A stretch of DNA of 44,656 nucleotides from Cyclobacteriaceae bacterium (GTDB taxonomy: Bacteria; Bacteroidota; Bacteroidia; Cytophagales; Cyclobacteriaceae), in NCBI GenBank assembly GCA_016787605.1, contig JAEUUE010000034.1, forward strand, positions 1 to 44,656, read 5' to 3'. Below, piece after piece: positions 4,426-24,292 of the stretch (the stretch's first letter is position 1; every line of letters begins with the position of its first letter). The notes beneath the pieces are model-generated. The model was given only the letters and a program-made list of their open reading frames with translations. It made no database searches and had not been told where the DNA came from. The translations under genes and the position numbers were made by a program.

Positions 4426-5040
4426 ATGAACCAGGATGAGTTTCTGAGAGAAAACAAGGATTTTTCGATTGTCCTTGGGGGTCCGTTCTTTCAATTGCTG
4501 CGGAAGGCCCACTTAACAGGTAATACGCTGGAATTGGTGAATCGTCGCGTGGTCGCTTTTGCCGTGTTGACCTGGTTACCATTGCTCGTGTTCTCGGCGG
4601 CCGAAGGACAGGCACTGTCGGGGCACTTAAGGCTCCCGTTCCTGCTGGATGTGGACGTTCATGTTCGGTTCCTGTTGGCTCTTCCCTTGTTGGTTTTGGC
4701 AGAATTGGTCGTTCATGAGCGCCTGTTGATGGTGATTGGTCAGTTCCAGGCCCGCAAGCTGATCCCGGACAGTTCCCTCGACGCCTTCGATGCGGCGCTG
4801 AAGTCTTCCCTGCGATGGAGGGACTCCTATTTTGCCGAAGCATTCATGGTCATCCTGATCTATGTGATCGGGTACCAGGTCGTGTGGCAGGAGGCGGCGG
4901 GGATAGAAGGAGCCACTACGTGGTACTATTCGTCATCCGATTCTGGCGGACATTCCCTGGCGGGCTCCTGGTTTCGCTATGTGAGCTTGCCGGTTTGGCA
5001 GTTCCTATTCCTTCGCTGGTATACCTCTAATGCATTCTGA
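4426..5040 (+). pseudogene. 5' half of a split polytopic membrane-protein gene
   Basis: This open frame codes for 204 residues. The first 199 (4426-5022) are the N-terminal half of a conserved bacterial membrane protein, with hydrophobic segments near residues 43-60, 80-96 and 138-155. At 5011-5022 the codons for LRWY coincide with a 12-bp direct repeat that recurs in frame at 20191-20202. Beyond it only TSNAF and a stop follow. Joining residues 1-199 to the 197 residues coded at 20203-20796 gives one continuous 396-residue protein, with a run of LRWY, YRIFIWARFLF and LNLRPTHPD that I recall as typical of this uncharacterised family. The gene therefore appears to be interrupted by the 15-kb insert. 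Family function is unknown; a truncated product may still be made. Confidence 0.8.
5011..5022 (+). repeat. Left 12-bp direct repeat at island junction
   Basis: CTTCGCTGGTAT is identical to 20191-20202, and both copies are in the reading frame of the split gene. The 12 bases upstream of the two copies also match at 7 positions, so the extended match is 19 of 24. It could be an attachment-site core or a target duplication. Confidence 0.75.
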
Positions 5041-5456
5041 TAGTCATGATCGACGTTGAAATCTCCATCAGGAGCAGGGCAAGCGAAATCATTGTTTCGT
5101 CTGTGTTTGTATTCGGAAAGGCCTCCAGTGGCCAACTCCCTGTCTGTTTTTCCAGACCTTGAAATGCAATGAATTAATTTTTCCATAAGGCACGAAATTA
5201 ATTTCTGCACAATTAAGTGACTAAAGGCGTTGGTCATTTCTAAATTCCTTGATCAAAAGACTTCATCAAGAATTTAGAGATACTTACAATAAAAAAGTTA
5301 GCTTGGTGAAGCTCATTATGCAGAAACTACTTCAATATTATTTATGGAGCTATTATTGTCCTGCTCTAGCGTTCAGGTAGAGAGATTTTCAGTTAAACGT
5401 CACAATATAGATGGGATTTGCAGGCATGTAAAAAACTTAAACCTTGATGGATATAT
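5041..5456. other. Non-coding left end of the island, with a hairpin
   Basis: No convincing gene was seen in 416 bp. Bases 5034-5045 (ATTCTGATAGTC, including the stop codon of the truncated 5' half) are identical to 20790-20801 at the end of the 3' half. A hairpin at 5241-5276 has arms TAAATTCCTTGAT and ATCAAGAATTTA with one bulged base. It has no adjacent gene to terminate and its role is unknown. Confidence 0.4.
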
Positions 5457-6677
5457 ATGATGAAATTAATAAGGCAGCTTTTCAGGTATTTCCTCTGGAT
5501 TTTTCTTGCGATTCTAGCAATCATTATCTCAACTTGGTTTTCATTTTGGATTGAAATACATTCTGATATTTCATTGCCAAGACCTACTGGAAAGTATGAA
5601 GTGGGTCGGACAACATTTCATTGGATAGATACTTTGCGGGTTGATAGCTTATCTACCCCACCATACACGAATAGAGAATTAGTTGTATGGATTTGGTACC
5701 CAGCATCAATTACCAAAGAAGACACAATAGTTGCATATGATCGAGCCCCTTGGGAAAAAGACAATAGTGAACAAGCACCATTACTTTTCAGGGCTATCTT
5801 TGCGAGAGACGGTAAAAAAATACATCCACATAGTTTTCAAGATCCAAGTATTTCACTAGCGCAAGCAAAATATCCAATTGTGTTAATGAAATCCGGAATT
5901 GGCACCTTGGCAACAGACTATTCCACCCTTGCAGAGAATTTAGCGAGTCATGGTTTTATTGTAGTAGGTTCTGATGCGCCTTACAGCACTTTTGCTGTTG
6001 CCTTACCAGATGGCAGGGTAATAAAGAGGACCTTTGAAGGTAATCCCGGAGAAGCTGCAAGTATTACAGAGAGAAGTACTAGGATATTTAACCGTCTTAT
6101 TTCGATTTGGACTGATGATGCTCGGTTTGTATTGGATAATCTTCAACAGATTAGTTCATCTGACAAATCAAGTAAATTCTTTAATCGAATTGATATGAGT
6201 TCAATTGGTGTCTTCGGACACTCCTTTGGAGGAGCGACAGCAGCACAGATTTGTTCTGTTGAACCTCGTTGCAAAGCAGGTATTAATTTAGACGGCTCTC
6301 CTTATGGAAGCGTCATTGAAATGGGAATGGACAAACCGTTTATGTTTTTACTGGCAGACCATGTTAAGGAGACTGATCCTATCAGCATGAAAATAAAATC
6401 AAACATTAAATCCATTTACAACTCAATTACTGCTGACAAATACTGGTTTTATTTAACTGGTTCCCAACATTTTAATTTTAGCGACATTCCCTATCAAAAG
6501 GAATGGCTTATCATGCGGATTTCAGGAGCTACTGGTTCAATCGGACGTAGACAAGGGACAGAATTGATCAATAGTACTGTTCTAAATTTCTTCAACGTTT
6601 ATTTGAAAGGTGAACCAAAGATACAACTAGACAATTTTATAAGAAGCCGGAGCGAGTTAAATGCTGCAATAGAATAG
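5457..6677 (+). CDS. PAF-acetylhydrolase-like alpha/beta hydrolase, membrane-anchored or secreted
   Basis: A 406-residue protein beginning with a hydrophobic segment (about residues 8-30, rich in I, L, F and W) that should act as an uncleaved anchor or signal. The nucleophile elbow GHSFGGATA is the GxSxG serine motif, followed by an NLDGSPYG strand that may carry the acidic residue. A late His in GSQHFNFSD completes a plausible catalytic triad. This arrangement is that of the platelet-activating-factor acetylhydrolase type II group, which cleaves short or oxidised acyl esters; the substrate here is unknown. It is the first complete gene of the AT-rich insert. The alternative start codon two triplets away (ATGATG) makes no difference to the reading. 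Confidence 0.75.
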   Translation: MMKLIRQLFRYFLWIFLAILAIIISTWFSFWIEIHSDISLPRPTGKYEVGRTTFHWIDTLRVDSLSTPPYTNRELVVWIWYPASITKEDTIVAYDRAPWEKDNSEQAPLLFRAIFARDGKKIHPHSFQDPSISLAQAKYPIVLMKSGIGTLATDYSTLAENLASHGFIVVGSDAPYSTFAVALPDGRVIKRTFEGNPGEAASITERSTRIFNRLISIWTDDARFVLDNLQQISSSDKSSKFFNRIDMSSIGVFGHSFGGATAAQICSVEPRCKAGINLDGSPYGSVIEMGMDKPFMFLLADHVKETDPISMKIKSNIKSIYNSITADKYWFYLTGSQHFNFSDIPYQKEWLIMRISGATGSIGRRQGTELINSTVLNFFNVYLKGEPKIQLDNFIRSRSELNAAIE

Positions 6678-6684
6678 AGAAAAG

Positions 6685-6816
6685 ATGGTGTACAATGCAT
6701 TTGGCTCTATGATAGAATGGGGATGTGAACATGGTAAAATTCCACAAGGAATTGCGTCTGTTTTTCCTATTGTAGATTTTTTAGGCATCAACAATCCAAG
6801 GAGTGAATCAATCTGA
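6685..6816 (+). CDS. Unrecognised 43-codon open frame
   Basis: A short open frame starts MVYNAFGSMIEWGCEHGKIP and ends at TGA 6814-6816, just after the esterase gene. I do not recognise it. Its composition looks protein-like, so it may be the remnant of a larger gene, consistent with the decayed surroundings. It could equally be chance. Confidence 0.2.
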   Translation: MVYNAFGSMIEWGCEHGKIPQGIASVFPIVDFLGINNPRSESI

Positions 6817-6894
6817 TAATCTATCCATTAAGCCAGTTTCGGTCTTGGACGCTTCCGTAACTAAATTTATTGATTCTACTTAACTCCAATCAAA

Positions 6895-7152
6895 TTGGGT
6901 TGTATGGGATCGAGAGATGCAATTTGGAATCACCAGAATCTTTTTTCAGCCTATATGGTTGGAGCATATTCTGACAATCTATTGGTAGGCATAGGTTCCA
7001 TCATACTATTCGATTCGTATGTTGAAATCAAGAGAATGTATGTGTTGGAAAAGTTTCGGGGGATGGGTATTTCTGAACGAATACTTTATGCTTTGGAAGA
7101 TTTTGCTGTTCGGAACGGAATGATAAAATTATGTTTGGAGACCGGGTCCTAA
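6895..7152 (+). pseudogene. GNAT N-acetyltransferase remnant
   Basis: The 85-codon frame (TTG start) contains the core of a GNAT acetyltransferase: LVGIGSIILFD, then VEIKRMYVLEKFRGMGISER, which is the acetyl-CoA pyrophosphate-binding R/Q-x-x-G-x-G/A motif, then a helix ending LCLETGS. In intact family members LETG is followed by about 30 more residues that include the last strand and motif B. Here a stop follows at once. The N-terminal strand and helix are also missing or unrecognisable. I read it as a truncated, probably inactive remnant. Confidence 0.65.
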
Positions 7153-7369
7153 TGACGTTAGTATATATTTTGTAGGTCAACAAATTATGAGGTAGCGTAA
7201 CCAGTGCCCGAAATGTTTCGATACATCGTTCCCTTGCTTCTTTCTCTGATAGCCCTGCCTCTATAAGGAGATTGACCTGGATTAATAAAGTCAATGAGTT
7301 AAAGTCTGAGTCTGTAAAATTGGGGACGCATCGTATTCTCATCAACCAATGACGAACGACCTTAATCAT
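7028..7369 (-). CDS. Unrecognised open frame, possibly a remnant
   Basis: A minus-strand frame of 113 codons starts MIKVVRHWLMRIRCVPNFTD and contains a helix-like ...LIEAGLSEKEARERCIETFR stretch. The first 70 residues (roughly 7160-7369) have protein-like composition. The rest lies antisense to the GNAT remnant and is probably not real. No family is recognised. The likely explanations are a small hypothetical protein, a remnant, or a chance frame. Confidence 0.25.
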   Translation of the reverse strand: MIKVVRHWLMRIRCVPNFTDSDFNSLTLLIQVNLLIEAGLSEKEARERCIETFRALVTLPHNLLTYKIYTNVIRTRSPNIILSFRSEQQNLPKHKVFVQKYPSPETFPTHTFS

Positions 7370-7442
7370 TTATACAGACTCATTTGCAACTACTTTTGTA
7401 ACCTTGTTGTCAATGAGGATATAGGATTATAAACATGGTGTT

Positions 7443-7901
7443 ATGAAAACAAGATTGCGATGGTTATTCATTTATTTGATTACAGCCTGTGATTCACCGG
7501 AGCCAGACCTAAAATTGATTTTTGATGGTGGGTGGAATTGGATTGAAACGAGCGGTATAGAATCCGATGGTGCACCTTTTTACAAAGAGCCTGACAGTGA
7601 AGGGTATGACTGGAGTTTTTTATTCTATGATGAACAAAAGACCAAGGGAAAGCTACAGACCTATAAAGATGAAGTTAAAGATGTTCAATACAGCTATGAG
7701 TACACTATTTCAAACGACCCTCTCCAACAGAAGCTCATTCTAATTAACCTTCAAGGAGGTAGTGGATTGCCTGAGATATATTATTGGGAAATTGCCGAAT
7801 CGAACTTTTACACTCATTTGTACTTGAAAAATGTGAATTACTTTTCTGAGGAGTGTTGTAATTTAAAACTCGTTCATCACTTTGTACTGCAGAAAGATTG
7901 A
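7443..7901 (+). CDS. Hypothetical lipoprotein
   Basis: A 152-residue protein with a short signal sequence ending in the lipobox ITAC at Cys16, so it should be lipid-anchored. The mature part is acidic and aromatic-rich (DGGWNWIETSG, YDWSFLFYD), with a pattern of short strands like small Bacteroidota lipocalin-type lipoproteins. No catalytic motif is visible. It ends 12 bp before the M64 peptidase gene and is probably co-transcribed with it. Function is unknown. Confidence 0.6.
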   Translation: MKTRLRWLFIYLITACDSPEPDLKLIFDGGWNWIETSGIESDGAPFYKEPDSEGYDWSFLFYDEQKTKGKLQTYKDEVKDVQYSYEYTISNDPLQQKLILINLQGGSGLPEIYYWEIAESNFYTHLYLKNVNYFSEECCNLKLVHHFVLQKD

Positions 7902-7913
7902 TGGTTTCGAAGA

Positions 7914-9326
7914 ATGAAGCAAATGAAAGAGTTTCTTTTGGCATTCTTAGTCGTTATGCACACTTCCGGTGTTGTTGCTCAAACATCATTGTTATTTCCT
8001 GTTGATACATTAATTAAGAACGGAACTGTTCACGATCGAATTAATCTGGTGTTTGTGAGTGAGGGTTATCAAGTTGAAGAATTGCCAAAATTTAAGGATG
8101 ATGCGCTAAATATTACTCACAAGATATTTAGTCAAACACCATTTAAAGAATATCATAATTATTTTAATGTGTTTGCAATCATGGTTCCGTCTGCCGAATC
8201 AGGAGTCAATCACCAACAACTCTATAAGGACACAAATCCCAACTGCGCGCAAATGCCTGCCAGTGTGGTTGATAATTTTTTTAAAAGTCGATTCGATCAA
8301 GGAATACACCACGCCTTAAGCATTGGCGATTTATGGTTGTTGTTGTATGTATTAGCTGAAAGCTTCCCATATTATGATCAGGTTATTGTGCTTACTAATA
8401 CAACCTACTATGGTGGCGGAGGAAGCGCGGGTGGGGGCACCATATCAACAACCACGGTAAATGAGGCTTCTGGGTGGGTGGCCCTGCATGAATTGGGTCA
8501 TTCATTTGGAGGATTAGCCGATGAGTATTGGTCAGGGTTTGATCAAGAGAGCCCAAATCTAACACAGGAGAATAGTGTCTCGAAAGTGCGCTGGAGGAAC
8601 TGGCTTAATACTAATGGCATTGGAATCTATTCAATTCCTGGAAGTGCAGATGGGTGGTACAGACCCCACCAAAATTGTATGATGCAGGTGCCGGGTTTTG
8701 ATTTTTGCAGTGTTTGTAGTGAGGCCATAACTGAAAAGATCCATTCACTAATATCTCCCGTGACTAATGTAGAACCACCCGGTGGAGCATTATTAAATGT
8801 GGGAACCGAAGATGTTGTACTGAAGTTGACTACGATTCAACCAATACCAAATACATTAAGGATAGTTTGGAAATTGAACAATAAGATTATTGGTAAAAAC
8901 ACATCCAGTATAGCTATACCTCCTGAACAATTAGATGACGGATACCTAAAAGTAGTTAAGGTAGAGGTAATAGATACAACCCACTTAACGCGAAGCGTGA
9001 ATCACTCAACCGGACATCTGTATATATATCAATGGGTAATAGATGGATTGGTTACCTCAGTGGAGAATGAAGAAATAAAATTTGAAGTTATAGTCTGGCC
9101 GAACCCAACTCATGGCAATTTGAATGTAGCATTTGATTTGGAGAAGCAAACGGAAGTTGAGATAAAAATCCTGGACGTGAATGGAGGGCCGATCGCAAAA
9201 ACCGTCGCTGGAAATTATCCAGCAGGAAGACACGAATTGGGCTATAACATCGACAAAAAGGGAATCTTCTTTGTGGTAGTGATTTTTGACGGTACCCCAA
9301 TAAGCTCCAAAATAATAGGGCAGTAG
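7914..9326 (+). CDS. M64-family secreted zinc metallopeptidase with T9SS sorting domain
   Basis: A 470-residue protein. Residues 1-23 are a signal peptide ending VVAQ. The catalytic domain has the zinc motif HELGH at residues 192-196, within HELGHSFGGLADEY, the hallmark of IgA-peptidase-like M64 proteins. Conserved NLVFVSEGY and Cys-rich NCMM...FDFCSVC segments flank it. After an immunoglobulin-like stretch, the last 80 residues (from VWPNPTHGNLNVAFD) form a type A T9SS C-terminal domain, which directs export through the outer membrane. Substrates are unknown; M64 members cleave host or environmental proteins. It probably forms a two-gene unit with the lipoprotein gene just upstream. Confidence 0.85.
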   Translation: MKQMKEFLLAFLVVMHTSGVVAQTSLLFPVDTLIKNGTVHDRINLVFVSEGYQVEELPKFKDDALNITHKIFSQTPFKEYHNYFNVFAIMVPSAESGVNHQQLYKDTNPNCAQMPASVVDNFFKSRFDQGIHHALSIGDLWLLLYVLAESFPYYDQVIVLTNTTYYGGGGSAGGGTISTTTVNEASGWVALHELGHSFGGLADEYWSGFDQESPNLTQENSVSKVRWRNWLNTNGIGIYSIPGSADGWYRPHQNCMMQVPGFDFCSVCSEAITEKIHSLISPVTNVEPPGGALLNVGTEDVVLKLTTIQPIPNTLRIVWKLNNKIIGKNTSSIAIPPEQLDDGYLKVVKVEVIDTTHLTRSVNHSTGHLYIYQWVIDGLVTSVENEEIKFEVIVWPNPTHGNLNVAFDLEKQTEVEIKILDVNGGPIAKTVAGNYPAGRHELGYNIDKKGIFFVVVIFDGTPISSKIIGQ

Positions 9327-9645
9327 ACGGTATGCGTCTTCGTCTTTTTGGCGCAATAGTCGGACACCAATTAGGTAGAATGGTTTATGAGAGGCATTAG
9401 TTGTAAAATAATAATTGCAGACTCATCTCACATAAATGTGATGTTTACTGTCCGTTTAATATCCTGTGCCGATTTCCTCTTCTGTGTTGACTCCTGGAGG
9501 AACAGAATACCCAAAGTTTATTTTTCACGATTTTGCATTACTTTGATGCTTTTACAAGCTTTGCAAGCTCGGCAAGATGGAAAATAAGGAGGTTAGAAGT
9601 AGCAAATTATACCCTGGAATTTCTTTACTGGTGAGTTGTAAAATC
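9327..9645. other. Intergenic stretch without recognised gene
   Basis: This 319-bp gap lies between the convergent M64 peptidase and serine hydrolase genes. A 66-codon plus-strand frame at 9387-9587 has no recognisable features. I see no clear terminator hairpin. Confidence 0.4.
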
Positions 9646-11040
9646 TCATCTTACTCGTTTTGCGGAAATGCCATCATTTCTTCGGGGTGGGTAAATCACA
9701 ATTGACTCTATCTTTCCTGCCTCTTGATTAAAAATGACTTTCATGGGGAGCTCTTTCATAAAGAATTTTGTTTCACTCTCGGGATGAATCGCTAAAACCG
9801 GTAATCCCCAATCCGGGGGTGACTCCAATTGAAGGCTTTCACCCTTCTTTGAGACGGTAAAAACTTCGCCATCGGCTGTTTGGAATTTACCCTCGTAATT
9901 GCTGAGTTTCGAAGGTTCTAGTTTTAGTTGTGTTTGCTTCACAAGTTTAGGAGTGGCAAGTGGAAAGGTTGAATCCAGAAGGTGATGCGCCAGATCACTG
10001 ATATCAGTTGCCTGATTGGATAGAACTACAACACCAATTTGTTTCTTTGGATTGTACATGATGCAGCCCGCGTATCCGGCCGATATTCCATCATGGTAAA
10101 TAAATTGGTCTACTCCTTCATCCAGAATAATCCAACCTAATGCCTGCTTCTTTTTATCGGAAATGGGACGACTACGGGATAAGCTAACCTCAATGGCCGG
10201 TGAAAGGGCATTCCTTTTAATGCCCATACTTATAGTCAGTACCTTTAACAGGTCATTCACGGATGAGTATAAGAGTCCGGCTGCGGGCATAAGTTTGTAA
10301 TTAGGTACATCCACCATCATAGGTGCCTTCTGCAGGCTGGCATCTAGACCAACAGCGAGGTTGGCCCGCATTGAGGGCGAAAGCTTAAACCCCGTACTTG
10401 TTAATTGAAGTGAACTTAGAATTTCCTTTGACATCGCATCTTCAAAAGGAATTCCGGTTTTCTTACTTATAATTTCGCTCATTAACCAATAGCCCGTGTT
10501 TGAATAATCCCAAGTTTTTCCAATTTCAGTATTTAGCTTGCATGACGCTAGGTAGTCATATAGCCCCTTCGAGTTTTCAATGGCTACATCAGGCATAAAA
10601 GCCAAACCGGAAGTATGTGTTGCCAAATCAAGCATAGTAATTTGTTTTCCGTTTTGTTGGGGAAGTTTTACATCCTTCGGCAGATAATTGCTGACTGGGG
10701 TATTGAGATCAATTTCTCCTTTTTGCACCATTTGGGCAAGGAGCAGCCCGCTAAACACTTTGGTCACCGAGGCTATTTCAAAAACGGTGTTGCCATCTGG
10801 TTTTCGAAGACCATTTTCATCGATATAACCTTCTGATATGATGCGAGTTCCACTTGGATTGATTAAGCCAACAATAATCCCCACTTTTTTCTCTCCTCCA
10901 GATAGATCGCTTATTCTTTTACTTAGTAGCGTCCTGATTTCTGCATCACTTGGCGGAGCGCCGACGGCAACCTGCGCTAAAGAGGTAGCACTTATCGATA
11001 GCAACATCAAATGAAGCAGACATTTCAATTTATGGATCAT
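9646..11040 (-). CDS. Beta-lactamase-family serine hydrolase
   Basis: A 464-residue exported protein of the class C beta-lactamase / DD-peptidase fold. With the start at 11040 the sequence begins MIHKLKCLLHLMLLSISATS, a signal peptide ending LAQ. An upstream ATG at 11085 would add 15 non-signal residues and overlap the neighbouring hydrolase remnant, so I reject it. The active-site SVTK is at residues 91-94, YSN at 179-181 and the third motif is HDG in IYHDGISAG. A C-terminal domain of about 100 residues (SNYEGKFQTADGE...) is typical of serine hydrolases with a lipocalin-like tail. Such proteins act on D-amino-acid peptides or esters in the periplasm; true antibiotic hydrolysis is not implied. 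Confidence 0.8.
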   Translation of the reverse strand: MIHKLKCLLHLMLLSISATSLAQVAVGAPPSDAEIRTLLSKRISDLSGGEKKVGIIVGLINPSGTRIISEGYIDENGLRKPDGNTVFEIASVTKVFSGLLLAQMVQKGEIDLNTPVSNYLPKDVKLPQQNGKQITMLDLATHTSGLAFMPDVAIENSKGLYDYLASCKLNTEIGKTWDYSNTGYWLMSEIISKKTGIPFEDAMSKEILSSLQLTSTGFKLSPSMRANLAVGLDASLQKAPMMVDVPNYKLMPAAGLLYSSVNDLLKVLTISMGIKRNALSPAIEVSLSRSRPISDKKKQALGWIILDEGVDQFIYHDGISAGYAGCIMYNPKKQIGVVVLSNQATDISDLAHHLLDSTFPLATPKLVKQTQLKLEPSKLSNYEGKFQTADGEVFTVSKKGESLQLESPPDWGLPVLAIHPESETKFFMKELPMKVIFNQEAGKIESIVIYPPRRNDGISAKRVR

Positions 11041-11082
11041 GGTGAATATGAACTTTTGGTTGTGACAAAGATGAGGATTTAA

Positions 11083-11513
11083 CAACTGTGGATTGCATAT
11101 AATTCACCAGTAATTGATGACGGTCGTTTATCAATCCAATTCAAGTCTACATCCTTATTTGAGCCATGTTGGTATGACGAGCCGGAGAGCCAGTTTAGAA
11201 GGTCTTCTGTTTACCATCATCAAGTTCAACAGCTTAACGTGCATGGCGCCTGGCAAAAAATTGATTTTCCCGTATTGATTGTTTATTGGGAATACGATTG
11301 GATAATGAACCGGGAAAAACTTGAATACATTGTCCATGTGGTTAATTCCAGTCATCCGGGATCTGCGGAATAGAAGATTATTCCTCAAATGGATCACCAC
11401 TTTTCGATTCATAAAACACCCAAAGAAGCCTTGAAGGAAATTACATCAACTATTCTAAAAATGATTTGCCTATCATACAGAAATGGATTAAATCAAAGGT
11501 GGCTGCCAATTGA
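11083..11513 (+). pseudogene. Alpha/beta hydrolase remnant (C-terminal part, stop and frameshift)
   Basis: One plus-strand frame reads SIQFKSTSLFEP, then SSVYHHQVQQLNVHGAWQKI, then DFPVLIVYWEYDWIMNREKL, a typical C-terminal half of an alpha/beta hydrolase whose acidic residue lies in the EYD segment. A TAG at 11371-11373 interrupts it. The same frame then continues KIIPQMDHHFSIHKTPKEALKE, with the expected late His. At about 11440 a frameshift moves the reading to NDLPIIQKWIKSKVAAN and a stop at 11511-11513. The N-terminal half with the nucleophile is absent. It is clearly a dead gene fragment. Confidence 0.7.
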
Positions 11514-11548
11514 AATCAATAAAAATTGGCTAGTTTTGTTCTCGAGCG

Positions 11549-11788
11549 GTGAATCTTCACACCCACGAGATTCGCGGAAATCCCAAGGGGTGGTATCATT
11601 ATTTCATTTGCCCGGTGTTATTGGGTATTCACTGCCAGCAATCATTTGTGGGACTTTCGTACTATTTCTTTAAGCCGTCAGTTACGTCACTAATCGCCTG
11701 CTGGCTTGTGTGTCCTGGTTATTCACAGTTCATTATATCTCTTTTTGGATGGACGTTTCTGTTCCCGTTTTTGAAGTGTGAAATCTGA
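11549..11788 (+). CDS. Unrecognised hydrophobic open frame
   Basis: A 79-codon frame codes for an aromatic, hydrophobic peptide (GWYHYFICPVLLGIHCQQSF and a later CPGYSQFIISLFGW) that could span the membrane. The first codon is a weak start. No family is recognised. Given the surroundings it may be a fragment of a membrane protein or chance. Confidence 0.2.
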   Translation: MNLHTHEIRGNPKGWYHYFICPVLLGIHCQQSFVGLSYYFFKPSVTSLIACWLVCPGYSQFIISLFGWTFLFPFLKCEI

Positions 11789-12747: not shown

Positions 12748-12856
12748 GATTTGAAAAATTGGAGAATATAGAATATCAATCAATTCCACTCCGTTAAATG
12801 ACAAATGACGTTAGTCGGTTTGGATAATATGCCTGAACTTAGTGAACTTTACAGTT

Positions 12857-13264
12857 ATGAAAGTTTCAGAGCATTTGATTAAGGGGATGACCCCGCTGCT
12901 TATGGTTTTTGATATGACCAAATCAATTCATTTCTATTGTGGAGTACTTGGCTTCGAGCTTTTTCAATCAGCTGGATTAGCAGATGACATGGGATGGGCA
13001 TACCTAAAATTGGGAGAAATTGAGCTGATGTTAAATACGATGTATGAAAAAGGAGATAGACCGAGTACGATAAACCAGACTCGGATAGGCCATCATGCTG
13101 ATACAGTGCTATATTTTGGCTGCTTAGATGTTAAGGGGCTACACCAGGAGTTCACAACAAGAGGGTTGAAAGTTTCCGAACCATACATAACTAGTTACGG
13201 ATGGATAGCCGTTAGTCTGGAAGATCCTGATGGATATGGACTTTGCTTTCACTCGCCACTGTAA
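12857..13264 (+). CDS. VOC-family (glyoxalase/bleomycin-resistance fold) protein
   Basis: A protein of 135 residues with the start at ATG 12857; a GTG at 12842 would add five residues. Paired beta-alpha-beta-beta-beta modules are visible. The first has LLMVFDMTKSIHFYCGVLGF followed by GWAYLKLGEIELMLN. The second has TVLYFGCLDVKGLHQEFTTR followed by AVSLEDPDGYGLCFHSP. This is the usual single-domain VOC layout that dimerises to build metal-dependent active sites (glyoxalase, fosfomycin or bleomycin resistance, dioxygenases). Substrate is not predictable. It appears intact, flanked by decayed genes on both sides. Confidence 0.75.
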   Translation: MKVSEHLIKGMTPLLMVFDMTKSIHFYCGVLGFELFQSAGLADDMGWAYLKLGEIELMLNTMYEKGDRPSTINQTRIGHHADTVLYFGCLDVKGLHQEFTTRGLKVSEPYITSYGWIAVSLEDPDGYGLCFHSPL

Positions 13265-13519
13265 CTCAACCGAATGTTCGAGAAAGAATACCACATCAGA
13301 TTAGAGATGTCTCGCATCAACACAACTAGTTACAGTGAGATTATGAAGTAAAATTCCATAAAGACACTTAGTATTTAGTGTGAAAAGCATATGTCTTGGC
13401 TTAAAGAGTGTAAAAGCCATCTTCCCCTGGTCACATTTGAAATGATACAATTCCAGTCATAATGACCATCCTGTTGGAATGTGGGAAACTCTTCATCGTA
13501 AGAATTTAGCCTGTGACGT

Positions 13520-13875
13520 TTTCCATGTTTCAACAGGAACTGAGTGGGTGTTAGATAGCCCGGGGAGCTGTAAGGTCTTTCATTGTTATAGATCTACATT
13601 CATGCCTGTGTGCCTAGCCTTGCCTGATTCAGGCTGTCAACTGCAAACAGACCTAGCGCCTAATCTCGGTAAGTCCTGTTAAAGCGTTCGATGTACCCAT
13701 TCTTTTGAGGCTTGCCATTCTGGATGAAGATGAGCTTTACTTGATCTACGCACCAGTCCTACAGGGTCTGAGCGATGAACTCTAGTCCATTGTCAATATG
13801 TAGTTGCTCAGGCCTGCCTCTCCATTCAACCAGTTTGTTCAGTTCGCGAATAACCCGTTGACTTTGCGTATCATA
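13520..13875 (-). pseudogene. IS3-family transposase (orfB, DDE) remnant
   Basis: Minus-strand reading gives the C-terminal half of an rve-type integrase core: QSQRVIRELNKLVEWRGRPE, LHIDNGLEFIAQTL, a stop, DWCVDQVKLIFIQNGKPQKN, GYIERFNRTYRD, a stop, then after more damage IYNNERPYSSPGYLTPTQFL. The second Asp (IDNG) and the Glu (YIERFNRT) of the DDE triad are visible, while the first Asp and orfA are absent. Several in-frame stops show it is dead. It is the only trace of a mobile-element enzyme found in the insert. Terminal inverted repeats were not identified. Confidence 0.8.
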
Positions 13876-14195
13876 CGGTTATCGATGCCTATGGAACAAG
13901 GTTGCTGGTAAAGATACCATGTTGTCAAATTGGGATCGCTATTTTCGGTAGTTTCCGGTTGCAAAATTGGAGTGTCGGATATACTAGGTAATAAAAGATA
14001 TTCGCTACCCTTGGCTTTGCAAGCGGAACCTACTCGCTAAACAAAAGTTTCAAAGCAAATTATTGACATCTTCCTGCTGCGTCGTAAACTGCCATATATC
14101 AAAATGAAATTCAACTATGACAAGTATATGCTCTTACTAAGATTCTCTTTGATATCATGGAAAGGAATAAATGAATCGTAGAAAATCTGAAATTC
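13876..14195. other. Intergenic stretch without recognised gene
   Basis: This 320-bp AT-rich stretch lies between the transposase remnant and the DUF2269 gene. No open frame, hairpin or repeat of note was seen. Confidence 0.4.
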
Positions 14196-14675
14196 TCATT
14201 TAGGCCACTTCATCACCATCATTACCAATGCTAGTATTGGCGCTATAATTGCCACTAAGCCCCAAAGTTCCCATGACTTATACATCTTGTTATAGATATT
14301 CCAATCAAATTCCCTGGTATTGTTCTCTGTGACATCAGTAGCTTGTCTCAATTTCTTTTGAAGCGGGTATAGTATCCACCCGAATACTATACCCGAGAAC
14401 GAAAACAAGACAATTGCCCAAAAAATCCAACCGGTTCGAATCAAAGGAAAGTGCGCTTGAATTGCTCCAATAATTCCTGCTATGGTGATAACTATGACTC
14501 CAGGAATTGTAAAATACTGATCAGACCTGATAAGCGATTTCCAAGTATGGTGTATAAGCATCAAATTTCGAGTTACATGCGCCTGATGCATCCAGTACAA
14601 TCCTGTAAAAATGTTGCCTAAAAAAACAATTACAGCGACAATATGGATTAGTTTATAGATCAGATAGATGTTCAT
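14196..14675 (-). CDS. DUF2269-like integral membrane protein
   Basis: A 159-residue protein with four predicted membrane helices at about residues 5-25, 56-75, 82-103 and 134-156. The N-terminus (KLIHIVAVIVFLGNIFTGLY), with its His in the first helix, and the later SDQYFTIPGVI segment match the DUF2269 group of small predicted membrane proteins. Some related four-helix families bind haem or copper, but nothing here proves cofactor binding. The frame is intact and seems to have its own start. Function is unknown. Confidence 0.65.
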   Translation of the reverse strand: MNIYLIYKLIHIVAVIVFLGNIFTGLYWMHQAHVTRNLMLIHHTWKSLIRSDQYFTIPGVIVITIAGIIGAIQAHFPLIRTGWIFWAIVLFSFSGIVFGWILYPLQKKLRQATDVTENNTREFDWNIYNKMYKSWELWGLVAIIAPILALVMMVMKWPK

Positions 14676-14687
14676 TGTGCTTAACTA

Positions 14688-14945
14688 TTAAGAGAGACTA
14701 CTGACATTTTTTGTAACAAGGCTTCCCGCCATTTCTTTGTCCCACTGAGGGGTAATTGGGTTACTAGACTTATAAGTAGAAAACTTATCAAGGACTAATT
14801 TAGCATGATTCCAAGCCTCTTGTGTTGATGTTCTCATAAACTGAGCCGTACAAAACTATGTTTGTGCCGCAAGCCCCAGAGCACGAGGATTCTCTGGGTT
14901 TAGTGTCAAAGCCTGCCTTTCCAAACCCCTTGTATCTAATAATGA
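14688..14945 (-). pseudogene. TPR-type lipoprotein remnant (C-terminal end)
   Basis: A minus-strand frame reads RGLERQALTLNPENPRALGL then AAQT, a stop, and QFMRTSTQEAWNHAKLVLDK with NPITPQWDKEMA before the final stop at 14690-14688. The ALTLNPENPRAL motif is a tetratricopeptide-like helix pair. The tail matches the end of a Bacteroidota TPR lipoprotein family as I recall it. The upstream part of the gene is not recognisable, so only the last 80-90 codons survive, with an internal stop. Confidence 0.55.
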
Positions 14946-15103
14946 GTAGGAAAACCCAATAGTCAACATTCTTTAGGGTCTGGCTATCGCGCCAAAAGAA
15001 TTCCAAGCCTGTACCATTTCCCATTCCGAAATTAATCAATCAACCCGTGTGACCCGTTGCAGCAAATGCAATAATTCTTGGTAGATGATACTCCATAATC
15101 TAT

Positions 15104-15721
15104 TTAATTGTTTAAACCGAAGGTATAACCAAGCGAAAGGTTGTAGAAGAAACCAATGTTATGCGGCTTATGTACTCTGCTCTTCCCCATATTGTCAATG
15201 TATGCAATCTCACCATTCTCAAGGGTTGAGTAAATATTTTGCCAGTAACGAAAGGAATGCTCAAGGAAGAAAGGTTTTAGTCCATTCTCTTTTCTCCGAA
15301 AAATGTACCTTCTTGAATAAATGCCGAAGCCACAATCCAGATTCGTATACTTCACACTTTGCGTCACATTTAATCCCGCTTCATACTGATGCACCTTTAC
15401 TTCAAAGCGCAAATCAAGTGTCTTCTTGAATCGATAGCCAACCCCCGGTCCGGTTGAGTATAGCGAATTCAGATACGTCAATCCGTTATCCTTGCGAACA
15501 AGGGATGGGTATTTTAAGTACATACCATGCGAGTATTCGAACGTGAACCTCTCACCGAGATACGTTCCGGCTATATTAAAACCTTGGAGTAGTACTGGTT
15601 GAAGAAGTCCACTCAATATTGACCACTTACCTGAGTACTCCATTACTTTCTTTTCATCAGGTTGACTATATAATGATAATGCTGTCAGAAGACCACTGAT
15701 TGTCAATATTGTTTTATTCAT
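15104..15721 (-). CDS. Outer-membrane beta-barrel-like hypothetical protein
   Basis: A 205-residue protein with an N-terminal signal peptide (MNKTILTISGLLTALSLYSQ). The rest alternates polar and hydrophobic or aromatic residues in short strands, and it ends in the strand LSLGYTFGLN, as expected for a small outer-membrane barrel. No enzyme motif is visible. It lies upstream (by map position) of the two LytTR genes on the same strand, so regulation by one of them is possible but unproven. Confidence 0.55.
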   Translation of the reverse strand: MNKTILTISGLLTALSLYSQPDEKKVMEYSGKWSILSGLLQPVLLQGFNIAGTYLGERFTFEYSHGMYLKYPSLVRKDNGLTYLNSLYSTGPGVGYRFKKTLDLRFEVKVHQYEAGLNVTQSVKYTNLDCGFGIYSRRYIFRRKENGLKPFFLEHSFRYWQNIYSTLENGEIAYIDNMGKSRVHKPHNIGFFYNLSLGYTFGLNN

Positions 15722-15941
15722 TTCCTAGATCAATTTGTGTTAATTACCCGGATTGTGAACATGAACGCAAAGTTGAATAGGAAAGTAATCAATGGCCAAC
15801 GTGTTGGGACACATTGGACATTTCTGGGGTAGTCTGGAGTTTGGCAGGCAAGTGGACTACTCATTCGGAATCAGACAAACAAAGTTAAAGCTTCGTTTTT
15901 CTGGAGTGGGATGGAAGCGGTTTGTAATATATTGTCTCAGA

Positions 15942-16259
15942 CTACTTAGAAAGTACCCTTCTTACATATTGCTTGTATGTTTTGCCAATTGGAAGTTTAG
16001 TTTGGTCGTCCATCAAAATCCCATTATCTGTTACAACCTGGATCTTTTGGATATTTACAATATAGGATTTGTGAATTCGGAGGAATAACTCTTCAGGCAG
16101 AGAATCCTCCAATTCCCTTGTAGTAATTTTTGCGACAAGGGTGTTCTTCTGCATGGCTAACTTAACGTAATTGCCATAACTTCTAAAATAGTGGATCTTG
16201 GCAAGCTCGATGGATGCAAAAGTTCCATCAATATATAATGTAATTTCATTGATATTCAT
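15942..16259 (-). CDS. Stand-alone LytTR DNA-binding domain protein
   Basis: The 105-residue protein is almost entirely a LytTR domain: IHYFRSYGNYVKLAM (first strands), TTRELEDSLPEELFLRIHKSY and IVNIQKIQ, ending near LPIGKTYKQYVRR. LytTR domains bind direct-repeat DNA sites and usually sit behind a CheY-like receiver. No receiver is coded upstream in any frame that I can see, so this is either a natural one-domain regulator or the surviving 3' end of a response-regulator gene. The open frame starts with a good Met and is undamaged. Confidence 0.7.
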   Translation of the reverse strand: MNINEITLYIDGTFASIELAKIHYFRSYGNYVKLAMQKNTLVAKITTRELEDSLPEELFLRIHKSYIVNIQKIQVVTDNGILMDDQTKLPIGKTYKQYVRRVLSK

Positions 16260-16523
16260 TTAATAAGGAAGATTGATAAAAGCTGATGATCATCACCGTT
16301 ATGAAAAGAACGGGAAATGGGATATTAAGTCAACTAGGTGGGATAGACTGGCATTATTTGGGGCAAATGGGAAGGAGAGGGCGCTTCAATTAAGTGACTC
16401 TGTCTTGATAGTTCTTACATAAAGTCACTGCGAAATATTGATTCCATGTCATAAGATGCAGTTAGGATTGATCTATCCCTAAACTTAGGACACATGGAAA
16501 AACAACACATTACACTCTGAGAA

Positions 16524-17393
16524 TTACCTATTCTCAAGCCGTATACTAATTTCCTCATTCAATGCCCTTGAGACCGGAATCTCTTCAGGGCAATTCTTCA
16601 ATTTAAGCTTAAGCCCACGGGCATTACCACTAACTGCTTCCACCTTTTCAAGATTAACAATAAAAGCGCGGTGGCAGCGGAAAAACATATGAAAATCTCT
16701 TAGATCATTTTCCACGCGTTTAAGCGTATTTCTTAACATTATTACTTGAAAACGCTCGTTTACCAGAATTCCGATTTTAATGTAGTTGTCGGCTGAAGTG
16801 ATGTAGAAAATTTGATCTGTTCGCCATTTGGCACTCTCCATTTTGTTTTCAGATCGGATAAATACCTCATCGTCTTGTGGGGTTTTCTCAATAAGGGGCT
16901 TTCTTGATGTGTTGATTATATTGGCTTCTTGGATGTTTCTTTTCAAGAGCCGGTTTTCAATAATCAATGTCCAAACGGTAACAGGCACAATGGCCAAAAC
17001 CAAAGTAACAAACTCTAAATAAATGAATCTGCTCAGTGAGGTGGGTATATCAAATACAAGCTGAACAAAAACAGAATTGATAACGCCAATTAAGAAGATA
17101 TGGACCAGGGTAACAAGAATTTCGCGACCGGTTGTCCATTGTTCCTCATCAAAGAATTTATGAAAAACCTTGGGAAGAATAATAAGATTCAGAAGCATAG
17201 TGATAAAGGTAATCGCTCCAAACCCGAGGGAATATAGGGCTGTCGTTGAGTCGCTGAAAGTGTCTAAGCCAAAGGGCCTGAATATTACTAAAAAGAAAAA
17301 GACATAAATACCAAAAGATGCGGCCCAAATCAGCTTTGACATAGGCCCACTTACAAGTGGATATGGTTTCTTAAATATTTTAGCCCCCCTCAT
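16524..17393 (-). CDS. Membrane-anchored LytTR transcriptional regulator
   Basis: A 289-residue protein if started at ATG 17393 (MRGAKIFKKPYP); an upstream ATG at 17429 adds 12 residues and is less likely. Four membrane helices occupy roughly residues 20-150, followed by a linker and a C-terminal LytTR domain (FYITSADNYIKIGI, then FHMFFRCHRAFIVNLEKVEA). This domain order is common in Bacteroidota, where such proteins probably sense a membrane-associated signal and bind DNA directly. The neighbouring one-domain LytTR gene lies downstream on the same strand. A 7-bp palindrome sits about 45 bp upstream of the start (17436-17453). Confidence 0.8.
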   Translation of the reverse strand: MRGAKIFKKPYPLVSGPMSKLIWAASFGIYVFFFLVIFRPFGLDTFSDSTTALYSLGFGAITFITMLLNLIILPKVFHKFFDEEQWTTGREILVTLVHIFLIGVINSVFVQLVFDIPTSLSRFIYLEFVTLVLAIVPVTVWTLIIENRLLKRNIQEANIINTSRKPLIEKTPQDDEVFIRSENKMESAKWRTDQIFYITSADNYIKIGILVNERFQVIMLRNTLKRVENDLRDFHMFFRCHRAFIVNLEKVEAVSGNARGLKLKLKNCPEEIPVSRALNEEISIRLENR

Positions 17394-17694
17394 AACATAG
17401 TACAAATAGAAGTAGACCAGTGAGATCAACTAAAATTGGCTTCTATAAGCCAAAATTAGAAATGTGAATAACCGAATTGTCTAAAAGTAACGATAGATTG
17501 TTCGAGCAATATAATATGGACGAAAGGCGTTTGTCAATCTTACGTCAACTGTTAGTGTTCCTTGACCGATATTTTCAAAATCCTTGTGTTGTTGCCAATG
17601 TCATCCATGACAACAACAGGATACATCAATCCAATTGGGGCTCGGTATTTCAGTATTCCAATTGTCTGTATGATTGGTTGATACGTTCAAACTC
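17394..17694. other. Intergenic stretch with an inverted repeat
   Basis: Arms TTGGCTT (17436-17442) and AAGCCAA (17447-17453) are separated by 4 nt just upstream of the membrane LytTR gene, so this may be an operator or a hairpin in its leader. A 74-codon plus-strand frame at 17477-17701 is not recognisable and is judged to be chance. Confidence 0.35.
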
Positions 17695-18010
17695 TTATTG
17701 AATTGATTTGCTACTCATTGCAAAAGCCTTTGATTTGTCTTGTGCGTCAATATTCCATCGCTTGAGTCTTTTCAAATGATTGTATGCAAGATGAGTTGCA
17801 ATTGGGAATACCCATGTTTTAAGAGAAGACTCACCCCTGAATGTGCGGAGTTTATCGAATGACTTCACAAACACACATTAGGTCTTGTACATCATTTCTA
17901 TCGACGAGAAGCCTATATACAGGAGTGCAATTGACTTTGAAATTCAAGCAAGCAGAGATTGAAATGCTTTAATGTCACCATTAATCACTTTTTTCAATTA
18001 TTCCGCATCA
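17695..18010 (-). pseudogene. ECF sigma-70 factor remnant
   Basis: Minus-strand pieces match the region 2 part of an extracytoplasmic-function sigma factor. VINGDIKAFQSLL is followed by a stop, then in another frame VYRLLVDRNDVQDLM, and after a 1-base shift FVKSFDKLRTFRGESSLKTW, VFPIATHLAYNHLKRLKRW and a stop at 17697-17695. The FRGESSLKTW-F-IATHLAYN block is the well-known region 2.3-2.4 core. Region 4 is missing. At least one stop and two frameshifts are present, so the gene is dead. Confidence 0.75.
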
Positions 18011-18051
18011 GTTGTTTTATGCAACATCAGCGAAAGCGTTGATAAAATGGA

Positions 18052-18924
18052 TTATCTTCCTCTTATTAAATCTCGATTTAGAATAAAACGTCTCAAGTCA
18101 TTGACCAATTTTGCGGGCCGCTCTTCTGGAATAAAATGACCGGTATCCTTATACGTGATCATCGTAGAATATTTAATAGCCATTGCGGATCGATCCCCAA
18201 CTGAAACAGGGAAAAATGGATCCTTGTCTCCCCAAACAATAAGAACAGGTATTTCAATCTCGCCTAATCGCTTTTGAACCTCAGCATAATTCTTCTTTAA
18301 ATCGGCAAGACTTTTATAAAAAATCTTGTATGTGAAGTATTTATTATTACTGGAGATATGTTTGCTAAATTCGGCTAATGTAAATTCCTGCTTGTAATAG
18401 GCGCCCTGCTTGTACATTTGCTTGAACCCAAATGTGGTGCCAGCCATCATCTTAAAAAATAGCTGACCTAATAATGGTACTTTTGCAATCTTCATTGGTC
18501 CTGGTATCGGGGTATCAATAAATAAATTAGTGGCCATTAATGCCATTTTTTTTACCCTTATATCCGGATGTTGTTTAGAAAAGGTCACGGACACCGGTCC
18601 TCCAAAGTCGTGACCAACCAAATAGATGTCTTGTACATCCTTTTTCACTAGCAACTCATACAGGCATTTAGACTGCCCGGTCATATAGTAATCACTTTGG
18701 GGTTTTGAGGATCTCCCAAAACCCATAAGATCCGGGACAATGACATGAAAATCCCTCGACAACTCTTCTGCCACTTTTATCCAACTGTTAGACGACCCAG
18801 GAATGCCATGCAAGAATACAATGGTTTCCCCATTTCCTGCCTCATGATAGTGCATCCTGCCTTGTGAAACATCACAAAATTGACTAGATAACTCAGATTT
18901 GAATTGCGCTTGGGTGTTTGTCAT
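18052..18924 (-). CDS. Alpha/beta hydrolase with Asp nucleophile (haloalkane dehalogenase / epoxide hydrolase type)
   Basis: A 290-residue cytoplasmic protein. The oxyanion-hole motif HGIPGSSNSW begins at residue 39 and the nucleophile elbow is VGHDFGGP with Asp106 in place of Ser. The acid is likely in WGDKDPFFP and the catalytic His in DTGHFIPEERP. An Asp nucleophile marks the haloalkane dehalogenase, fluoroacetate dehalogenase and epoxide hydrolase branch. The cap domain (about residues 135-205) is rich in Phe, Tyr and Lys. The substrate cannot be chosen from sequence. The gene is intact although surrounded by remnants. Confidence 0.75.
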   Translation of the reverse strand: MTNTQAQFKSELSSQFCDVSQGRMHYHEAGNGETIVFLHGIPGSSNSWIKVAEELSRDFHVIVPDLMGFGRSSKPQSDYYMTGQSKCLYELLVKKDVQDIYLVGHDFGGPVSVTFSKQHPDIRVKKMALMATNLFIDTPIPGPMKIAKVPLLGQLFFKMMAGTTFGFKQMYKQGAYYKQEFTLAEFSKHISSNNKYFTYKIFYKSLADLKKNYAEVQKRLGEIEIPVLIVWGDKDPFFPVSVGDRSAMAIKYSTMITYKDTGHFIPEERPAKLVNDLRRFILNRDLIRGR

Positions 18925-18962
18925 AATATGTTAAGCTAGTATAAGAAATGAATGGTTTTAAT

Positions 18963-19126
18963 TTAACCTATTAAAATTGGCTTTCGCATCTTTAAGAACC
19001 TGAATATCGGTTGAAGGATTGTCTCGGCAGATTCATCTTGAACATAGTGGCCGGTTTCAGGTAATTCGATTACAATCGTATTTTTTGGAAAAGACTTGCT
19101 TCCCGCGTCGCTGCCAAGTATATGAT
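18963..19126 (-). pseudogene. C-terminal fragment of an alpha/beta hydrolase
   Basis: A minus-strand frame reads DHILGSDAGSKSFPKNTIVI then ELPETGHYVQDESAETILQP and IFRFLKM before the stop at 18965-18963. The TGHYVQDESAE segment carries the catalytic His typical of the end of an alpha/beta hydrolase. Nothing of the rest of that gene is present. Upstream the frame is closed by TGA and the SDR remnant begins, so a deletion has joined pieces of two genes. Confidence 0.6.
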
Positions 19127-19525
19127 CTAGTCAAAGTCGCGTGTAAAAATAATTACGATTAACAGCCAGCCAATTATGGCACTATGGAGGTTATATAAAT
19201 GTAATGGGATCAAACTTGGGCAACCGTACCCGTTGGAGGTAGGGTTAGGGCCGATGCCATTGAAAACGATATCAATTTTGGCTTCTGTGTCCTTTATCTT
19301 CTTAACGTATGCATCAATACCGTATTCATCGAGGGCATCAATGGTATCTGCCTCCGAACTGCCACCAGTGTCGTTTATTTCATTGGCCACTTTCTGTGCT
19401 TGCTTGAAGTTACGTGCTGAGACATAAACTCTTGCACTATGACGTGCAAATGATCTGGCAACAGCCCCCGCTATTGCACCGCTTGCCGTAAAAACTCCTG
19501 CAACTTTGGTTCTTAGATTATCCAT
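19127..19525 (-). pseudogene. Short-chain dehydrogenase/reductase, N-terminal remnant
   Basis: The 132-codon frame starts MDNLRTKVAGVFTASGAIAG and continues with ARSFARHSARVYVSARN (Rossmann beta-2), DALDEYGIDAYVKKI and KIDIVFNGIGPNPTSNGYG (the NNAG-equivalent). After about residue 108 the similarity stops and a short unrelated hydrophobic tail leads to the stop. The YxxxK catalytic half of the SDR is missing. The Gly-rich loop also departs from TGxxxGxG. It is a truncated, inactive gene. Confidence 0.65.
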
Positions 19526-20154
19526 TTGCTTTAATTTTCTTTACTAATTTAGACAATCAAGTCAGTAAAAATGGTCAGAATGAGAAAGATCTCTCCAGGT
19601 TAGGGTGAGGAAATAAGTGATGAATGTCGTTGATCATTCGTTATGTTACTTCTACTGTGATTAAAGCTGCTCGTCATATAATATGCACAATCCAATCTTT
19701 GGGTATCATTGATGATATTGATCATTATAATCATGAATTCATGCACTCCAGTGAGTGTTTTGGAATTATACCGGAAAGACTATCACACCATGCAGGAACA
19801 GATGATATACGGAGAATCGATCCCCTTTGAGCAGGTAATAGGGCGCCTCAAACCCTACAAGAAAAAATCAGAAATCGTAATTAAAGCATTCCGTAGTTCT
19901 TCCATTTCCATACTGAATGCCCCTCTTTTGAGCATGAATCGTAGGCTGGCATTTTGCATTTGCCTTTATCAAAAAGAGCAAGCAAAGTTAGGCGGGCTTT
20001 CGCATTGTCTTCCCGCTAAGGTCACGCATGGAATTTCCGACATACACTTTTTTTCCCCTTCCAGCAATCCCTTCCAGGACCCCATTTATTCCGTTCCTCC
20101 TTGCGCGTGTTTCTTCCAAAGCCTGCGGGTGCACCATAATTGATTCTAGCGATT
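19526..20154. other. Right end of the island, mostly non-coding
   Basis: No intact gene is seen in 629 bp. A plus-strand frame at 19745-19870 reads PVSVLELYRKDYHTMQEQMI then YGESIPFEQVIGRLKPYKKK. This is protein-like and faintly reminiscent of the C-terminal end of AbiEii-type nucleotidyltransferase toxins, but I could not verify that. The remainder shows only short frames. The junction repeat follows at 20191. Confidence 0.35.
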
Positions 20155-20796
20155 ATGAAAAATGCAAAAGATCCAAAACAGTACGGCTTTCTTCGCTGGT
20201 ATTACCGGATTTTCATCTGGGCGAGGTTCCTGTTCCTCGTTTCCAGGATCCCGCTGAACCTGCGCCCCACGCATCCCGATAATGCGGGCGGGCTTGGATT
20301 CCTGGAGAACACGGTACACGCCATCAAGCCCATCGCCCTGGCTCATGGCGCCATATTGGCGGGAATGATCTCTAATCACATCTTTTACGGAGGTGCTTCG
20401 CTGATGGATTACAAGATTTCCATAGCCCTCATGGCGCTTTGGGTGATGTTGGTAGCACTCATTCCCCTGATGGTATTTTCCGGGGTATTGGCTGATGTGA
20501 AGCGAAAAGGCATACAGGAGTTTGGTTTACTGGCGTCCCGGTTTACAGGAGAATTTGAAGGGAAGTGGATGCGGGAAAATCTTCCGGAGAACCATCCGGA
20601 GCTGGGAGATGATATCCAATCGCTCGCGGATCTTGCCGGCAGCCATGCCGTAGTGGCGAATATGAAGTTTCTCCCCGTCAGCCGGAGTACATTGATTTCG
20701 CTGATCCTTTTCACGTTAACACCGGTCGCACCCCTGGTTCTCACCATGATGCCCTTGAGTGAAGTGCTGAAGATGCTGGCGGGTGTATTATTCTGA
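20155..20796 (+). pseudogene. 3' half of the split polytopic membrane-protein gene
   Basis: From 20191 the frame continues exactly where the 5' half stops: LRWY then YRIFIWARFLFLVSRIPLNL and RPTHPDNAGGLGFLE. Membrane helices follow at about 85-105 residues from the fragment start, with a last helix before the C-terminal VLF. The island supplies an ATG at 20155 (MKNAKDPKQYG) in frame, so a truncated C-terminal protein of 213 residues could be expressed. The THPD and GGLGFL elements are the family's most conserved part as I recall it. Whether either half is functional, or the two halves reassemble as separate chains, is unknown. Confidence 0.75.
20191..20202 (+). repeat. Right 12-bp direct repeat at island junction
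   Basis: CTTCGCTGGTAT is identical to 5011-5022 and coded in the same frame (LRWY). It marks the transition from AT-rich insert to GC-rich flank. Confidence 0.75.
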
Positions 20797-20856
20797 TAGT
20801 CCTGGAATAGGTGTACCTTCCCTGTGGCAATGGGTTGATCAACGAATTCTGTCGCC

Positions 20857-24075: not shown

Positions 24076-24292
24076 CTCTGTGTGATTTGAGTTTTTCGAT
24101 GCGAAAGGCGGAGTCGTCGACTTCAGACTCTTACCTGTTTGCGATAAAGTTCAACGCCAACGCCTTCCTTTTCAATGATTAAAGTCACACGATGCCGAGA
24201 CCTTCGATCGCAACCCGGTCAGTTTGCCCTTGCTTTGTGGCTTACTTCTCTTGAACTTACTCACCTCTAATGTCTTAAAATTACCCCGGGTT

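What the first reader, a model, noticed from the sequence alone, without database searches (positions are those of the whole stretch)
4426..20796. A membrane-protein gene split by ~15.2 kb of AT-rich DNA at an in-frame 12-bp repeat
The 199 codons ending at 5022 and the 197 codons starting at 20203 join into one continuous 396-residue membrane protein. Both halves carry CTTCGCTGGTAT (LRWY) in frame exactly at the break, and the upstream 12 bases also partly match. This is the signature of insertion into a protein-coding gene with a duplicated core, yet no integrase is visible. The disrupted gene is an unusual integration target, and the cargo is not a typical mobile-element cargo.
Basis: partly seen in the sequence, partly recalled or inferred. 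Interest (0 to 1): 0.85.

Follow-up and report, generated by a model that had tools for sequence, protein, structure and literature searches.

The report
Foreign DNA splits a membrane-protein gene
A 15-kb piece of foreign, partly decayed DNA sits inside a bacterial membrane-protein gene with a 12-letter copy of the target on each side; it is an unusually readable example of ordinary gene disruption by acquired DNA, with the inserting machinery missing.

Summary
4426-5022 and 20203-20793 are halves of one gene. Homologues run through the break in one frame in 10 of the 11 other genomes with a match, and 37 of 39 matching plasmid records cover at least 80% of the joined protein in one place. CTTCGCTGGTAT occurs in the 4.0-Mb draft genome only at the two borders. 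The flanks look like the host (GC 0.548), the insert does not (0.395). The right end of the insert was identified: a repeat of the genus plus the start and about ten codons of a RadC-like gene, cut short where the target gene resumes. None of the congeneric RadC-like ORFs seen has LRWY there, so the 12-mer is most simply a duplication of the target. A six-frame Pfam scan shows no tyrosine or serine recombinase; the ends show no inverted repeat. The only recombinase trace is a decayed IS3-type transposase at 13546-13869. The insert holds several gene relics; both target halves are free of stops. Best reading: passive capture of a foreign chromosomal fragment by non-homologous joining, not an active integrative element. 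No donor and no empty site were found, so the mechanism is inferred.

The parts
4426..5022 (+). 5' half (199 codons) of the interrupted membrane-protein gene; reads on for 5 codons into the insert to a TGA at 5038-5040
5011..5022 (+). left copy of the 12-bp target duplication CTTCGCTGGTAT
5023..20190 (.). inserted AT-rich foreign segment, 15,168 bp, GC 0.395, one copy in the draft genome
5034..5045 (+). 12-mer ATTCTGATAGTC, also present at the 3' end of the interrupted gene (20790-20801)
   Evidence: 17 of 1000 random 58-mers of the insert share at least 12 bases with the flanks, so weak
5457..6677 (+). open ORF, PAF-acetylhydrolase/PETase-like alpha/beta hydrolase (406 aa)
6895..7152 (+). GNAT acetyltransferase fragment
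7914..9326 (+). open ORF, M64 peptidase with Por secretion tail (470 aa)
9646..11085 (-). open ORF, serine hydrolase of Pfam family Beta-lactamase (PF00144), 479 aa
12532..12804 (-). acyltransferase fragment (weak match, below the Pfam cut-off)
12842..13264 (+). glyoxalase-family ORF (140 aa)
13546..13869 (-). decayed IS3-type transposase (rve_3) with in-frame stops; the only rve_3 match in the draft genome
14196..14675 (-). DUF2269 membrane protein ORF (159 aa)
15942..16259 (-). LytTR DNA-binding domain ORF (105 aa)
16524..17429 (-). LytTR regulator ORF (301 aa)
17695..17874 (-). sigma-70 region 2 fragment
18052..18924 (-). open alpha/beta hydrolase ORF (290 aa)
19127..19525 (-). short-chain dehydrogenase fragment
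19709..20143 (+). ORF of which residues 15-53 resemble the C-terminal end of AbiEii (E 1.3e-5)
19894..20154 (+). interspersed repeat of the genus (core ATTTATTCCGTTCCTCCTTGC at 20084-20104), in most listed loci upstream of RadC-like genes
20155..20190 (+). stub of a RadC-like gene: ATG plus codons similar to RadC up to CAGTAC (20184), then GGCTTT, fused in frame to the 3' half of the target gene
20191..20202 (+). right copy of the 12-bp target duplication
20203..20796 (+). 3' half (197 codons and stop) of the interrupted membrane-protein gene

Best explanation
A 15.2-kb fragment of foreign chromosomal DNA was captured inside a membrane-protein gene. It came from a lower-GC bacterium, probably of the same phylum, and its right end carries sequence typical of the host's own genus. 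Shown: the gene is interrupted, the insert is compositionally foreign, its right end falls within the first codons of a RadC-like gene, several of its genes are fragments while the target halves have no stops, and a 12-bp direct repeat belonging to the target gene flanks it. Inferred: the two ends were joined without homology at a break with a 12-base stagger that was filled in, which duplicated the 12 bp; the insert was already decaying before it arrived; the gene product is probably lost.
For: Homologues are continuous across the break. In columns with one residue in at least 9 of 10 rows (one row, L012, was empty), the left half keeps 7 of 7 and the right half 11 of 12, which fits a gene intact until recently. 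Flank tetranucleotide usage correlates 0.92 and 0.97 with 133 kb from 8 other own contigs; the insert correlates 0.67. The right end matches a repeat in 24 of 61 other congeners, in a few only its 22-bp core; of 29 loci compared, 21 have a RadC-like ORF of at least 146 aa behind it, and the one ORF scanned is RadC by Pfam. None of these has LRWY at that place, and no fetched locus from outside the own genome has the 12-mer. No terminal inverted repeat. No site-specific recombinase in six frames by Pfam. Relics: IS3-type transposase, GNAT, sigma factor, dehydrogenase. No match of the insert's DNA in plasmid or phage records.
Against: A 12-bp stagger is long for random breaks (general knowledge). 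No donor and no empty site were found. Whether the host has Ku and LigD was not tested. A short shared core is also what some tyrosine recombinases leave. The origin of the six bases GGCTTT at the right border is unknown. Tetranucleotide usage of the insert fits none of 12 sampled congeners well (0.51-0.78), so the donor is open.
Confidence: 0.5

Rival explanations
1. The insert is the remnant of an integrative element that entered by a tyrosine recombinase acting on a 12-bp core, and has since lost its integrase and transfer genes.
For: Exact 12-bp direct repeats at both borders. The right end carries a RadC-like start, an AbiEii-like stretch and a genus-wide repeat; such genes are often seen on mobile DNA (recalled).
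Against: The border cuts a RadC-like gene at about codon 10. No site-specific recombinase or relaxase in the Pfam scan. The target halves show no stops, so there was little time to lose an integrase after entry (inference). One copy in the draft genome.
Confidence: 0.3
2. The insert was brought by a transposase that makes target duplications of about 12 bp, acting in trans or on a one-ended substrate.
For: 12-bp duplication of target sequence; a transposase relic inside.
Against: No inverted repeats at the two ends: local score 8, reached by 36.7% of 2000 random pairs. The IS3-type relic is internal and decayed.
Confidence: 0.1
3. The contig is mis-assembled.
For: Draft genome of 191 contigs; foreign composition of the insert; reads were not available.
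Against: Two false joins would have to return to the same codon of the same gene at the same 12-mer; the window has no N; the flanks on both sides match the genome.
Confidence: 0.08
4. The halves are still expressed and work together as a split membrane protein, the right half being translated from the RadC start codon.
For: Both halves are open; the right half is fused in frame to a start codon with an upstream region that in congeners precedes RadC-like genes; conserved residues are kept in both halves.
Against: Recent insertion explains the open frames equally well; an in-frame fusion has a one-in-three chance; no expression data.
Confidence: 0.06

Closest known systems
Genomic islands without a recognisable integrase (recalled)
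   Same: Foreign composition, sharp borders, short direct repeats
   Different: Target is the middle of a protein-coding gene rather than a tRNA gene or gene end; content is partly decayed DNA without an evident mobility module
Illegitimate capture of foreign DNA by end joining or transformation (recalled; paper listings)
   Same: Ends without homology, an end inside a gene, short junction sequences
   Different: A clean 12-bp target duplication is longer than I would expect; the repair enzymes were not tested here
IS transposition (some families make target duplications of about 12 bp, recalled)
   Same: Duplicated target
   Different: No terminal inverted repeats, no intact transposase, 15 kb of unrelated genes

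Membership tests
Integrative (conjugative or mobilizable) element | site-specific integrase gene | tested here: not met
   six-frame Pfam scan of 5023-20182, E up to 0.01; only an IS3-type rve_3 relic
Integrative (conjugative or mobilizable) element | direct repeats (att cores) at both ends | tested here: inconclusive
   12-bp exact repeats, better explained as target duplication because the right end is a cut RadC-like gene
Integrative (conjugative or mobilizable) element | relaxase or transfer genes | tested here: not met
   (Pfam)
Insertion sequence or composite transposon | terminal inverted repeats | tested here: not met
Insertion sequence or composite transposon | target-site duplication | tested here: met
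   12-bp repeat whose right copy is foreign to RadC relatives; no empty site was seen
Prophage | phage structural or replication genes | tested here: not met
   Pfam, DNA; PHROGs only for 10 selected proteins, where matches were transposase, esterase/lipase, a FabG-like reductase (weak) and families of unknown function
Horizontally acquired genomic segment | composition unlike the host, sharp borders | tested here: met
Horizontally acquired genomic segment | empty site in a close relative | tested here: inconclusive
   right half of the target gene unmatched in 38 of 38 other genomes; homologues elsewhere show no conserved neighbourhood in the three loci compared

The most novel reading that the evidence does not exclude
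The insertion created a working split membrane protein: the left half ends with a short new tail, and the right half is translated from the borrowed start codon and upstream region of a RadC-like gene, so that foreign DNA turned one gene into two without loss of function.
Probability: 0.06. Interest if true: 0.6.

Novelty: new member of a known kind. Interest (0 to 1): 0.3.

Why it matters
It is a readable case of how a large piece of foreign chromosome can sit inside a bacterial gene without any visible mobile element. The identified end inside a RadC-like gene suggests that the second copy of the 12-mer came from the target, which helps separate target duplication from an integrase core. If many such cases exist, passive capture contributes more to genomic islands than surveys that look for integrases would count.

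Tried and rejected
Scans of genome contigs with the joined protein and with the M64 peptidase found no relative; these scans reach only close relatives, and one search shows M64 peptidase relatives in the order (203 of 390 genomes including the own one match, many only in the secretion tail; best full-length ones 42-43% identical), so no donor. Whole-insert DNA searches gave only short matches: the genus repeat, the IS3-type relic and single-gene stretches (at most 7 and 2 candidates per relative were scored, so weak matches may be missed). The left end (5011-5460) has no match in 294 other family genomes (2 candidates scored per genome in the rows shown). IMG/VR scans with the 406-aa hydrolase and the 23-bp repeat core found nothing. 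I considered an att-like hairpin in the repeat: DNA folding is not clearly better than shuffles (z -0.23 for the window copy; -1.23 and -0.95 for two others). I considered that the left tail copies the gene's 3' end (12-mer ATTCTGATAGTC), as in templated repair; 17 of 1000 random stretches share as much, so it is only a hint. Two congeneric loci (L051, L064) seemed to cut RadC at the same place; they carry a small insertion and RadC continues behind it. No Rfam match at gathering score and no tRNA in the window. One search was a flawed alignment (reverse-strand loci mistranslated) and is replaced, in which one locus, L012, was still left empty by my filter. The list of 13 RadC N-termini was pre-filtered for VAEI-like residues; the unfiltered list is.

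Papers: only listings were seen; of PMC7719229 I saw passages found by term, one of which says that all Bacteroidetes with end joining harbour the conventional kind. Nothing on this locus was in these five listings. Names recalled and not given by a call: 'IS3-type' for the rve_3 transposase, and the mechanisms in Closest known systems.
Full report
What was checked. The window is the whole contig C117 of a 4.0-Mb draft genome of 191 contigs. The 12-mer occurs only at the two borders in that draft genome; with one mismatch allowed it is expected 0.17 times per window.

The gene. The joined 396-residue protein has one-frame homologues that run through the break in 10 of the 11 other genomes that match, out of 390 searched including the own one; the eleventh matches only residues 338-396; the closest is 51% identical. 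In plasmids, most of them of Burkholderiaceae and rhizobia, 39 records match and 37 cover at least 80% of it in one place. The LRWY motif is part of the family: the closest homologue reads FLRWYFRIFIWARF. In nearly invariant columns the left half keeps 7 of 7 and the right half 11 of 12 residues (9 homologues plus one empty row). The gene is patchily distributed: 0 of 38 other genomes, 24 of them congeners, match the right half. Around three homologues for which 15 to 17 kb were compared, the window's flanking ORFs have no relatives at E up to 1e-6 except one weak match (24224-26791, 25% identity, near one of them).

The insert. GC drops from about 0.55 to 0.38 and stays at 0.37-0.43 to near the right border; overall 0.395 against 0.548 for the flanks. 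Fifteen readable stretches of other own contigs lie at 0.525-0.585; six more read only N. Twelve stretches of twelve congeners lie at 0.411-0.493. Tetranucleotide usage ties both flanks to the genome (0.92, 0.97) and sets the insert apart (0.67); the insert does not fit the sampled congeners well either (0.51-0.78). Ten ORFs that I took for likely genes cover 8,151 of 15,168 bases; other ORFs of similar length exist but had no or only partial family matches. Besides open ORFs for hydrolases, an M64 peptidase with a Por secretion tail, a LytTR regulator, a glyoxalase and DUF2269, there are fragments of a GNAT enzyme, a sigma factor, a dehydrogenase and, weakly, an acyltransferase, an IS3-type transposase with several stops, and a short AbiEii-like stretch.

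The right border. Window 20026-20184 matches a repeat found in 24 of 61 other congeners, at 69-83% over 80 bases or more in many and over 22 to 60 bases only in others. Of 29 loci compared, 21 have a RadC-like ORF of at least 146 aa behind it; the other eight have a broken or interrupted RadC, an HTH gene, or something else. The ORF of L044 is RadC by Pfam (PF04002, E 4e-37) and the gene in L037 is an HTH protein. Similarity of the window to these loci runs through the start codon to CAGTAC at 20184 in the best cases and stops there (two loci align a little further by chance matches in a small insertion). In the RadC ORFs the next residues are VAEI or similar; none has LRWY, and no fetched locus from outside the own genome has the 12-mer. 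So the insert ends inside a RadC-like gene, six bases (GGCTTT) are of unknown origin, and the 12-mer belongs to the target gene. With the left copy also continuing from the target gene, the simplest description is a 12-bp target duplication. The fusion keeps the right half in frame with the RadC start codon.

The left border. After the 12-mer the frame runs five codons to a stop. This end has no match in 294 other genomes of the family. A 12-mer just inside it recurs at the gene's 3' end, but 17 of 1000 random stretches share as much with the flanks.

Mechanism. A six-frame Pfam scan found no tyrosine or serine recombinase, relaxase or phage structural gene, the two ends have no inverted repeat, and the segment's DNA has no match in the plasmid or phage collections. 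The insert holds relics while the target halves are clean, so most decay probably took place before arrival (inference). I therefore favour passive capture of a chromosomal fragment, joined without homology at a staggered break. Bacterial end joining is known in the phylum (PMC7719229, passages); whether this host has it was not tested. An element that lost its integrase is the main rival.

Verdict. The finding is real and its anatomy is clearer than first thought, but it is a new example of a known kind of event.

Noticed in passing
20084-20104 in the window; 29 of 129 loci (some of them overlapping own-genome loci): ATTTATTCCGTTCCTCCTTGC is the exact core of a repeat interspersed through the genus, mostly upstream of RadC-like genes but also in front of an HTH gene (L037) and in other places (L059, L060, L116). 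Its function is unknown; folding of three copies is not clearly better than shuffles.
   Followed up: partly
L051 and L064: Two congeners carry near-identical short insertions in the same place of the RadC-like gene, which continues behind them.
   Followed up: no
genome G000 versus its genus: Fifteen readable sampled stretches of G000 have GC 0.525-0.585 while twelve stretches from twelve congeners have 0.411-0.493: the host looks like a high-GC outlier of its genus.
   Followed up: no
13546-13869: The only PF13683 transposase match in the draft host genome is this decayed copy; related DNA occurs in other genomes of the family at 69-73% identity, with long open frames in the two read (L108, L109).
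   Followed up: partly
24224-26791: One ORF of 855 aa joins a Beta-lactamase-family (PF00144) domain to an amidohydrolase domain.
   Followed up: no
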